This document shows, one piece after another, positions 1 to 13,109 of a stretch of DNA of 64,000 bases. Location of the stretch: the NCBI RefSeq assembly GCF_003265705.1, contig NW_020312935.1:2097769-2161768 (forward strand), given 5' to 3'. Under the pieces are notes generated by a model. That model had not been told where the DNA came from. It saw only the letters and a list, made by a program, of their open reading frames with translations, and searched no databases. Source of the stretch: Callorhinus ursinus (taxonomy: Eukaryota; Chordata; Mammalia; Carnivora; Otariidae). How positions within the stretch are numbered: the stretch's first letter is position 1; every line of letters begins with the position of its first letter. The position numbers and the translations under genes are program-made.

Positions 1-755
1 TGCATATTTTTCTCGTTTAGTGCTCTGAAGATATCTTGCCAGTCCTTTCTGGCCTGCCAGGTCTCTGTGGATAGGTCTGTTGCCAATCTAATATTTCTAC
101 CATTGTAGGTTACATATCTCTTCTCCTGAGCTGCTTTCAGGATTTTCTCTTTGTCTCTGAGACTCATAAGTTTAACTATTAGATGTCGGGGGGTTGACCT
201 ATTGATTTTGAGAGGGGTTCTCTGTGCCTCCTGGATTTTGATGCCTGTTTCCTTCCTCACATTAGGGAAGTTCTCTGCTATTATTTGCTCCAATATACCT
301 TCTGCCCCCCTCTCTCTTTCTTCTTCTTCTGGGATCCCAATTATTCTAATGTTGTTTCGTCTTATCGTATCACTTATCTCTCGAATTCTGCCCTCGTGAT
401 CCTGTAGTTGTTTATCTCTCTTTTTCTCAGCCTCTTTATTGTCCATCATTTGGTCTTCTATATCACTGATTCTCTCTTCTGCCTCATTTATCCTAGCAGT
501 TAGTGCCCCCATTTTTGATTGCACCTCATCAATAGCCTTTTTGATTTCAACTTCGTTAGATTTTAGTTCTTTTATTTCTCCAGAAAGGGTTTCTCTAATA
601 ACTTCCACGCTTTTTTCAAGCCCAGCTAGTATCTTTAAAGTCATGATTCTGAACTCTAGGTCCGACATCGTACTGATGTCCGTATTGAGTAGGTCCCTGG
701 CTGACAGTACTACCTCTTGTTCTTTTTGCTGAGGTGATTTTTTTCGTCTTGTCAT
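1..755 (-). CDS. LINE-1 ORF1 protein, 5' part, cut by the window edge
   Basis: The frame starts at the ATG at 755-753 (beginning MTRRKKSPQQKEQEVV) and stays open for 251 codons to position 1, where it leaves the window. ORF1p is the trimeric RNA-binding chaperone of the LINE-1 retrotransposon particle. The beginning is basic, then roughly residues 30-130 are rich in Glu, Lys, Leu and Ile in a coiled-coil-like pattern (for example EERISDIEDQMMDNKEAEKK), followed by the RRM-like part with IRIIGIPEEEE and the start of the C-terminal domain. No stop or frameshift was found, which is unusual for a fossil LINE-1 and points to a recent insertion. Other carnivore ORF1 proteins have, as I recall, a similar start. 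Whether ORF2 is intact cannot be seen, because it lies left of the window. Confidence 0.85.
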   Translation of the reverse strand, partial: MTRRKKSPQQKEQEVVLSARDLLNTDISTMSDLEFRIMTLKILAGLEKSVEVIRETLSGEIKELKSNEVEIKKAIDEVQSKMGALTARINEAEERISDIEDQMMDNKEAEKKRDKQLQDHEGRIREISDTIRRNNIRIIGIPEEEERERGAEGILEQIIAENFPNVRKETGIKIQEAQRTPLKINRSTPRHLIVKLMSLRDKEKILKAAQEKRYVTYNGRNIRLATDLSTETWQARKDWQDIFRALNEKNM

Positions 756-3325: not shown

Positions 3326-3948
3326 TCGTTAGTAAAGTATCCATTCAACCTGGTTCTTTCCTGCATTTAAGTACTTTCCTTTCCTTATGAGAACACTGTA
3401 TCCGGGGCACTTAGTGAGCCAGAGTGGCGTTCCGGTGGGACTCACCAGGAATGACAGAGATTACTAATCCCAGATGTGTGCTGTCAAGGGACGTACTTAC
3501 AAGATCAGCGTGAGCAGGGTGGTGACAGGAGGTTGCAGGATGAGTAGCTGCCACAGAAAGAAGAAAGCAGACTAAGTTCAAGTAAAAGTCTAGGATAGAA
3601 ATTTATTTGAGGACGTCTTATTCTTGGCAAAAAACAATGCAAATCATTTCATATAGTAAACTAAAGTGACCATTTCCCACTGATAATTCTGTAGACAAAC
3701 TAGGATTCCAGAGCTGAAGTGTCACAAATCACTCACATCTAATCTCTGCTTACTCTTCAAAGGCCCTCAGTATAAAAATATTTAAATCAGATCAATCGTA
3801 AAGTTGCCAGTACCTAAATATTACTGTGGAAGTATTTGCCTCATAATTTTACCAAAAGAAGCTCCCTATTAATAAATCAGAGCATATTTCTGATAGTTTT
3901 AGATGAGATCGGGTACATTCAAGGTGGTATGGCCATAATCTGATACTT
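3326..3948. other. Unique-looking intergenic sequence
   Basis: No open frame with coding character, RNA gene or recognisable repeat was seen. It lies between a LINE-1 tail and a pair of SINEs. Confidence 0.4.
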
Positions 3949-6625: not shown

Positions 6626-8330
6626 TTTTTCAAAGGGCCGTATGTACATAAATATAAGGCAACTCCCCAGATAAGGCAATGCCCTCCTTTCTCAATGAGG
6701 AGATTTAAAGATAGTTATTTGGGAGCAAACTTGACTATGTCATTTCTAAGGATATAGGTGAAACAGTCAAATGTCTAGTTAACTTGTTCTACAAAGGCAT
6801 GTTTAAAATCACATGTTATCTGTAGTCGTGTATTTACTTAGGCGCACTGCTCTGGAAACTCGCTTTCCATGACATGGCTTTACTGAAACTCTTCAAATGC
6901 AACCTCAGTCTCAGTGCCTTAATTATCAAGAGAGCGACTTCTGTAATTATTTAACAGTTTCAAAACTACACCAACTTTACCTTCATCTACTGCTATCACA
7001 AAACACTTCTTCCCGACCTCACAAGTACCCAGTTACAAAAGCAGCTGGAAAAGCTGATTTTTATGTTTGTTTTTAAGATAGTTATTCATGTCTCTACAAC
7101 AGCACTTTCTAGATTGCTCTTTTAAGGGATCCTTGGAGGGCTTGTTGACAAAGACATCTAAAACTTGAAGTTGTGAGGTCATATCCCCCAGAATAATCAC
7201 TACATGCACTTTAAATTTGTCTCTTTTTCTACCTGGTTGGTCAGGCGATCTCTATAATCATCCGACACTGGTATTGATTGAGGTAATTTCAGGCTAATGC
7301 ATCTTCCCCAAATAGTATTTATTTTTCAAAATTAAAAAAAAAATGAGAGAAAATACCACAATGTGAAATACTGAAAGGACTTGAAGAAGACTTTTTGGAT
7401 GGAAAATTTTGTGGGAGAAAACCCTGTCTTTTATTAGGACACATGTGAAAAGAAGATGGCCAAAGGCCCATCAATAAAGTAGTACCTATAAAATGAGATC
7501 AAAGACTGCAATAAGAGGAGACAAAACAGAACGCAACAGATATTGATGGGGTACATGTTATGATGACACACTTCAGCATTAAACTAATCCTGTGCATCCT
7601 TCCAGGCAGGAATTGATTTCCCTACCCATTCCCTGAGGTCCTTCTGTTTCTTGGTACTGTGACTTCTCCCCTTATCTTCTCGGGTCTCCAGTGTAAATGA
7701 GAATTAATGCCAGGTCTTTCATCGTGGTCTGGAAAGGCCTCTATTCGGAGGCCAATGGAAAAGAGAATTTCTAGTACATAGCTCTAGCTGTAAGTCTATA
7801 AAATAGCTGTCAAGAGCACATTCATGATAATCAAGACAATGCAAATTAAAGATTACTATCCTTTTTTTTTTTTTTTTTTTAAGAACGTAGGAATTCTCAA
7901 GGAGCTCTTCTGCTCTTGACATCACAACACCTTCTACTCTCCAACGTCACAAAATGAGGTCCACCGATTGGGTCAACACTAAGAGAGAATTAAGTTCATT
8001 TTAAGAAATTATGTTCTAAGTGTAATATTCTCCTCGTGTTGTGTAATTCCTATTGGTAGAGAGAAGAGAGTTCAGTAGGTGAACAATAACATTCTTGAAC
8101 ATGCCTCCTTATGTAGACTTGCTATTTCTCACACATGCTGCCCAACGTGGCTTGACAAAAATCATACAACCTCACTGACCATATCTCAGCTTAAATTTGG
8201 ATCACAAGCCTAACAATCTTATAGTGTTCGCCGGGTCTCGTCATGCTTCTGCTCTCTGAGAGGACTTCTTCCTATTTCCTCCTCTACTCTACCTCCAATG
8301 ACAACGAAGTCCCTGATCCTCATTTTCAGT
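6626..8330. other. Intergenic sequence, nothing recognised
   Basis: AT-rich with a T21 run near 7860-7881. No coding exon, RNA gene or clear repeat was found on either strand. If PKD1L3 keeps its human structure this could be one of its introns. Confidence 0.35.
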
Positions 8331-11482: not shown

Positions 11483-11602
11483 CAGCCTGGCAAATGAAAG
11501 AATGCCCCGGGGAGCACAAGTCCACTTTTGATGAGATCCAGTTGGAGTTTTGGGACATGTAAGTGCAGCTGGGGGGCTCTGGGAGCCAGGGGGGCACGAC
11601 AC
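11483..11602 (-). pseudogene. PKD1L3: PKD1L3 coding exon 2, open
   Basis: 120 nt between acceptor 'ttttggtag' (AG at 11604-11603) and donor GTAAGT (from 11482 down). It reads SCTYMSQNSNWISSK, then FICQA, matching the end of the human PKD1L3 lectin domain (SCTYLSRN, ISSK, FICQT from memory). No stop in the frame set by exon 1. The two cysteines expected near the end of a C-type lectin fold are present. Confidence 0.8.
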
Positions 11603-12816: not shown

Positions 12817-13109
12817 CTGGGTTGTTTTTTTCTTGACGTTTTCCCAGCTGCTTTAGATTTTGCCCAATCCAGCACTTACTCCCTTCTTCCAGAGAGTCCC
12901 AGAGAAGATCCCGGACCCCCAGGTTTCAAGCATAAGCAAGGTGTCCTCCCTGGACACGACAGTAATTTTCTGCTTCCTCGTAGCTGCAGTGAAACCTGTT
13001 AAGCTGATAAGTTATTTTTACCATGTTGCTCTGGGATATTTAGCTCACTTCCTAGAATGATACCTGTTCTAATGGATAACCAAAGCCAGATTCTTCCCCT
13101 GAAGAACAT
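12817..13109 (-). pseudogene. PKD1L3: PKD1L3 coding exon 1 with frameshift and stop
   Basis: 293 nt from the ATG (13109-13107) to a GTAAGG donor at 12816-12811. The first 30 or so codons carry the hydrophobic signal peptide (WLWL, GIIL). Lesions: 2-bp deletion at 13010/13011 and an ancestral-frame TGA at 12928-12926. Flanking lectin-domain residues (ENYCRVQGGHLA, WIGQN) remain easy to recognise, so decay is recent. Confidence 0.85.

What the first reader, a model, noticed from the sequence alone, without database searches (positions are those of the whole stretch)
12817..13109. PKD1L3 exon 1 carries two independent disabling lesions
Seen: a 2-bp loss beside 13010 in the codon of the first lectin cysteine, giving a stop at 13001-12999 after 36 codons, and an ancestral-frame TGA at 12928-12926 where the human protein has Trp. 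The rest of the exon still aligns and the splice phases fit only if the 2 bp are restored. Known: PKD1L3 pairs with PKD2L1 in sour-responding taste cells. Inference: the gene is dead or dying in this lineage, which would fit the taste-gene losses reported in aquatic carnivorans.
Basis: partly seen in the sequence, partly recalled or inferred. Interest (0 to 1): 0.82.

Follow-up and report, generated by a model that had tools for sequence, protein, structure and literature searches.

The report
Broken taste-channel gene PKD1L3 in carnivoran
A carnivoran related to weasels and bears carries a PKD1L3 gene, a partner subunit of a channel in acid-responding taste cells, with a frameshift, a premature stop and a lost splice site in its first four exons; it is probably a dead or dying gene, one more case of the well-known decay of taste genes, and not by itself evidence that sour taste is gone.

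Summary
Confirmed: window 13109-12817 (-) is exon 1 of the PKD1L3 orthologue and carries both stated lesions. Two bases are missing in the codon of a cysteine kept in 83 of 83 database proteins covering it, giving TAA at 13001-12999 after 36 codons; the ancestral frame has TGA at 12928-12926, where 82 of 88 proteins have Trp. Jackal/dog, black bear and wolverine models are intact at both. New here: exons 2-4 are in the window and open, but the donor after exon 3 (7632-7631) reads GG, not GT. Neighbouring DHODH (three stretches) and the HP protease exon are open, so poor assembly is unlikely. Three lesions of three kinds support pseudogenisation (about 0.85). Limits: exons after 4 lie outside the window; no reads; species unnamed. 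A protein tree puts the window beside the two mustelids sampled (support 75), not inside their clade; "aquatic" is untested. The sour-taste link is weak: Pkd1l3-knockout mice keep wild-type sour nerve responses. Overall amino-acid divergence is not raised, so loss may be recent, or the channel part may still be in use. Ordinary in kind: a new case of taste-gene decay.

The parts
12817..13109 (-). PKD1L3 exon 1 (N-terminal hydrophobic stretch and first part of the C-type lectin domain), 293 nt, 2 short of the relatives' phase; donor CCAG|GTAAGG
   Evidence: tblastn with wolverine P0036, bear P0033, jackal P0029, badger P0044, human P0001; Pfam Lectin_C E 0.00032, 21.9 bits, just under its 22.6 cut-off, for 13009-12818 with TGA read as W
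13009..13011 (-). place of the 2-bp loss in the codon of the first lectin cysteine (Cys34); exact base ambiguous by one
   Evidence: sequence; frame change between 13011 and 13009; Cys in 83 of 83
12999..13001 (-). TAA stop met after 36 codons because of the frameshift
12926..12928 (-). TGA in the ancestral frame at Trp62
   Evidence: Trp in 82 of 88
12872..12874 (-). TGC (Cys) at Trp80 (KWWIG in carnivoran relatives, KCWIG here), missense
   Evidence: Trp in 87 of 88
11483..11602 (-). PKD1L3 exon 2, 120 nt, open, normal splice sites (gtag| ... |gtaagt)
7633..7740 (-). PKD1L3 exon 3, 108 nt, open
7631..7632 (-). exon 3 splice donor: GG instead of GT; the next downstream GT adds 7 nt and leads to TGA in exon 4
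   Evidence: ancestral GT is inferred
3501..3547 (-). PKD1L3 exon 4, 47 nt, open, donor GTAAGT

Best explanation
This is the original PKD1L3 gene of a carnivoran, in its usual place beside DHODH, decaying into a unitary pseudogene. Shown: a 2-bp loss in exon 1 ends the reading frame after 36 residues; an in-frame TGA in the same exon and a GG at the exon 3 donor would each disrupt the ordinary product by themselves. Inferred: a normal transcript would be degraded and make no full PKD1L3, so PKD2L1 would lack this partner in taste cells. Because three of the four visible exons are open and the lineage shows no excess of overall amino-acid change, the loss was probably recent relative to the split from mustelids. 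The effect on sour taste is probably small.
For: Three lesions of different kinds (indel, nonsense, splice site) in 4 exons. Cys34 in 83 of 83 and Trp62 in 82 of 88 database proteins. Jackal/dog, bear and wolverine models intact in exon 1. PKD1L3(-), DHODH(+) and HP(+) in one window; DHODH stretches and HP protease exon open. In an alignment of 14 chosen mammals, with mouse left out, the window departs at 7 of 37 otherwise unchanged sites, the 13 others together at 22 of 421 (Fisher p 0.005); without the two lesion codons 5 of 35 (p 0.047; p 0.025 against 15 of 354 when the low-quality whale and manatee models are also left out).
Against: Only 4 exons are visible and 3 of 4 are open. Overall divergence is not raised: window-Canis 49 of 187 sites, wolverine-Canis 54 of 188; window branch 0.109 against 0.187 and 0.168 from the same node to wolverine and badger. 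With mouse kept, the window departs at 3 of 25 sites and mouse at 8 of 32, so that index is weak. Trp62 is Arg in four New World monkey models, so the site is not wholly fixed. The GT donor is inferred from protein junctions. Several annotated models lack exon 1 (P0048, P0076) or lack exons 3-4 (dog P0039, P0041), so a product without these parts is not unthinkable.
Confidence: 0.85

Rival explanations
1. The N-terminal part is lost but a shortened PKD1L3 is still made: transcription or translation starts after exon 1 (for example at the exon 2 ATG), exon 3 is skipped in frame, and the channel part still works with PKD2L1.
For: Exons 2 and 4 are open and exon 3 (108 nt) can be skipped in frame; a black bear model starts at the matching exon 2 Met, a red fox model bypasses exon 1 and two dog models lack exons 3-4; mouse residues 1632-2151 with PKD2L1 keep Ca2+ and acid responses in Xenopus (PMC8357825 passages); no overall acceleration.
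Against: Such a product would lack the N-terminal hydrophobic stretch and half the lectin domain; the shortened models are predictions, not transcripts seen here; two separate rescues are needed; change at otherwise unchanged residues suggests relaxed constraint.
Confidence: 0.1
2. Sequencing or assembly errors, or a single null haplotype, in an otherwise working gene.
For: No reads were available; the 2-bp loss lies a few bases from an A5 run, where indel errors can occur; the disabling mutations found in the carnivorans of PMC12906968 were polymorphic (passages).
Against: Two of the three lesions look like substitutions; the HP protease exon (266 codons, 95% to Canis aureus) and three DHODH stretches show no break. 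Their other exons were not checked.
Confidence: 0.05

Closest known systems
TAS1R1/TAS1R2 pseudogenes of pinnipeds and otters (PMC3407556 abstract; PMC9680018 passages)
   Same: Taste-cell gene decayed by inactivating mutations in carnivorans
   Different: Sweet/umami G-protein-coupled receptors with direct receptor roles; PKD1L3 is a channel subunit whose loss spares sour nerve responses in mice
Pkd2l1 pseudogenes of whales, hippopotamus, pangolins, aardvark, echidna (PMC4079202, PMC4232718, PMC12906968 passages)
   Same: Loss in the same PKD2L1/PKD1L3 channel complex
   Different: The partner gene; Feng et al. found no unambiguous whale Pkd1l3 sequence, owing to incomplete sequencing
PKD1L3 models labelled low quality: lynx; humpback, dugong, manatee, but also sugar glider, white-footed mouse and a bat
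   Same: Orthologues that annotation flags as damaged
   Different: DNA not examined here; the label is not confined to aquatic or carnivoran species and may be artefact

Membership tests
PKD1L3 orthologue | Best match to PKD1L3 over consecutive exons | tested here: met
   Exons 1-4 align in order to about residues 1-190 of PKD1L3
PKD1L3 orthologue | Neighbourhood beside DHODH and HP | tested here: met
   DHODH stretches, HP; that this is the order in human is recalled
PKD1L3 orthologue | C-type lectin domain | tested here: inconclusive
   Lectin_C 21.9 bits against a 22.6 cut-off for exon 1 alone with TGA read as W
PKD1L3 orthologue | GPS, PLAT and polycystin channel domains | not testable with these tools
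   No later PKD1L3 exon recognised in the window (hits with E below 0.5 shown); own-genome search did not complete
Unitary pseudogene | Disabling lesions in the copy at the original place | tested here: met
   Frameshift, TGA, GG donor
Unitary pseudogene | Intact orthologue in close relatives | tested here: met
   Protein models of Canis, Ursus americanus, Gulo intact in exon 1; DNA not seen; the badger model lacks the Cys34 region
Unitary pseudogene | Lesions fixed across reads or individuals | not testable with these tools
   No reads or second assembly
Unitary pseudogene | Raised rate of change | tested here: inconclusive
   Excess at otherwise unchanged sites, none overall
Aquatic-carnivoran taste loss | Species is a pinniped or otter | tested here: inconclusive
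   Tree of window plus 12 species: sister to Gulo+Meles, support 75, outside their clade (100); no otter or pinniped was in the tree

The most novel reading that the evidence does not exclude
PKD1L3 has been lost repeatedly in carnivorans and aquatic mammals (this lineage, and perhaps lynx, badger exon 1, humpback and sirenians), while other parts of the sour pathway are kept in at least some carnivorans (for instance no pseudogene was found among the oral genes studied in bat-eared fox, PMC12906968 passages); this would show in nature that PKD2L1 and sour detection do without PKD1L3.
Probability: 0.3. Interest if true: 0.5.

Novelty: new member of a known kind. Interest (0 to 1): 0.3.

Why it matters
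It adds PKD1L3 to the taste genes that decay in carnivorans. Of the paper searches with this gene name, the fully listed ones (24, 4 and 1 papers, titles and abstract starts seen) named no PKD1L3 loss study in Carnivora; some searches were mostly noise and listed only the top 30 of 3,006, 15 of 2,343 and 10 of 1,728. Mapping the lesions across seals, walrus, otters, raccoons and cats would show whether loss follows aquatic feeding or strict meat-eating, and it is a natural test of what PKD1L3 is for, since mouse knockouts show little sour phenotype.

Tried and rejected
Naming the species by haptoglobin failed: the protein database is clustered at 90% identity and the best named hit was Canis aureus at 95% (best 120 of 183 listed). 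PDB searches with exon 1 pieces gave no hit or lectins and unrelated proteins, not PKD1L3. A direct or inverted repeat around exon 1 was sought and none found. A search for shorter PKD1L3 fragments (about 297-945 aa) returned 5 proteins, one named carnivoran (Lynx pardinus, 'low quality', starting about at exon 4), no pinniped, otter or raccoon; among the 113 (about 952-3031 aa) the named carnivorans were canids, Ursus americanus, Gulo and Meles. This absence is weak evidence: clusters hide members, names are cut short, and pipelines omit or repair damaged genes. I considered that all carnivorans had lost exon 1, because several carnivoran hits lack a Pfam lectin label; rejected, since jackal, dog, bear and wolverine proteins carry the exon. 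A link of low-quality labels with aquatic life was considered and not upheld: of the 6 such labels visible, three are humpback, dugong and manatee, three are sugar glider, white-footed mouse and a bat. The badger model may be a pipeline detour round a lesion; not testable here.

Full report
What was claimed.

The observation. The minus strand from 13109 reads ATG, 36 codons, then TAA at 13001-12999. Wolverine residues 1-33 fit 13109-13011 and 35-99 fit 13009-12815: one codon, Cys34, is short by two bases. In the resumed frame TGA at 12928-12926 lies at residue 62. Of the 113 proteins, 88 match exon 1; Cys34 is present in 83 of 83 that cover it and Trp62 in 82 of 88, the exceptions being Arg in four New World monkey models and Leu or Gln in two fish polycystin-1-like proteins. 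The models of golden jackal/dog, American black bear and wolverine are intact at both sites. The exon ends in a good donor and is 293 nt; 295 nt would give the phase that fits exon 2.

Further exons. Exons 2 (11602-11483), 3 (7740-7633) and 4 (3547-3501) are in the window and open. Exon 3 ends TCAG, and in badger the protein runs RTS-ATHP across this junction, which fixes the donor position; the window has GG there (7632-7631). The next GT downstream adds 7 nt and leads to TGA in exon 4; skipping exon 3 keeps the frame. So there are three disabling lesions, plus Trp80 (87 of 88) changed to Cys. That the ancestor had GT is inferred; no relative's DNA was available. This third lesion may be the least harmful: two dog models lack exons 3-4. 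No later PKD1L3 exon was recognised in the window among hits with E below 0.5 (a few weak matches with E 0.13 to 0.47 lie elsewhere or in repeats and were taken as chance); the low-coordinate edge of the window is an L1 element (label recalled).

Is it an artefact? Three DHODH stretches and the haptoglobin protease exon (266 codons, 95% to Canis aureus) are open; the other exons of these genes were not checked. Two of the three lesions look like substitutions. Reads could not be seen.

Rate of change. In an alignment of 14 mammals chosen from the 113, leaving out mouse, the window departs from an otherwise unchanged residue at 7 of 37 sites against 22 of 421 for the 13 other species together (Fisher p 0.005), or 5 of 35 without the two lesion codons (p 0.047; p 0.025 against 15 of 354 when the low-quality whale and manatee models are left out too). 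Sites are few, species are related, and with mouse kept the window has 3 of 25 and mouse 8 of 32. Against this, overall distance is ordinary: window-Canis 49 of 187, wolverine-Canis 54 of 188, bear-Canis 47 of 170 (the bear model departs near its exon 3-4 end), and the window's branch is shorter than those to the mustelids. This fits a late loss, or a gene that evolves fast everywhere.

Which animal? The protein tree (window plus 12 species; 190 columns) puts the window beside wolverine+badger with support 75, outside their clade (100), next to bear (57), and within Carnivora (100). Pinniped, raccoon, skunk and red panda are all possible; none was sampled. 'Aquatic' is therefore untested.

How it works. 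Most likely the gene makes no functional protein. Shown: frame break, stops, donor GG. Inferred: transcript decay, no PKD1L3 at the taste pore. The effect on sour taste is likely small: mice lacking PKD1L3 had wild-type chorda tympani responses, and glossopharyngeal responses were unchanged even in double knockouts, while loss of PKD2L1 cut chorda tympani sour responses by 25-45% (PMC3098277, abstract); another paper says that Pkd1l3-knockout mice taste acid normally (PMC10017821 passages); OTOP1 is described as a sour receptor (PMC8826303 passages; PMC7710729 passages). The main rival is a shortened protein: the C-terminal fragment of mouse PKD1L3 with PKD2L1 keeps Ca2+ and acid responses (PMC8357825 passages), and only downstream exons can exclude this.

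What is known. Taste-gene loss is reported in pinnipeds and otters (PMC3407556 abstract; PMC9680018 passages), and Pkd2l1 is lost in whales and hippopotamus and in pangolins, aardvark and echidna. In whales Feng et al. found no unambiguous Pkd1l3 sequence. The paper searches with PKD1L3 as a term whose lists were complete showed no title or abstract start on PKD1L3 loss in Carnivora; some searches listed only a small top part; subscription papers are mostly not held. PKD1L3 models labelled low quality occur in lynx, humpback, dugong and manatee, but also in three land mammals; none was examined at DNA level.

Verdict. Observation right and strengthened; the dead-gene reading is probable; the aquatic and sour-taste story is unproven. 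A new case of a known kind.

Noticed in passing
window 1-755 (-), element to about 2750: L1 retrotransposon (label recalled, no family search run) with an ORF1 open for 251 codons to the window edge, beyond PKD1L3 exon 4 and in the same orientation as the gene; apparently young.
   Followed up: partly
P0044 (Meles meles model): European badger PKD1L3 model lacks the N-terminal stretch and the Cys34 region and starts MPKTFHCSY, as if the pipeline spliced round a lesion in exon 1; possible shared or parallel damage in mustelids.
   Followed up: partly
P0235 (Lynx pardinus): The only felid PKD1L3 model named in the two searches is 718 aa, labelled low quality, starting about at exon 4; felid PKD1L3 may also be damaged.
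   Followed up: no
P0008, P0009, P0010, P0012: Four New World monkey PKD1L3 models have Arg at the otherwise conserved lectin-domain Trp62.
   Followed up: no
P0099, P0046, P0052: Humpback, Amazonian manatee and dugong PKD1L3 models are labelled low quality; so are P0073, P0085 and P0089 from land mammals.
   Followed up: no
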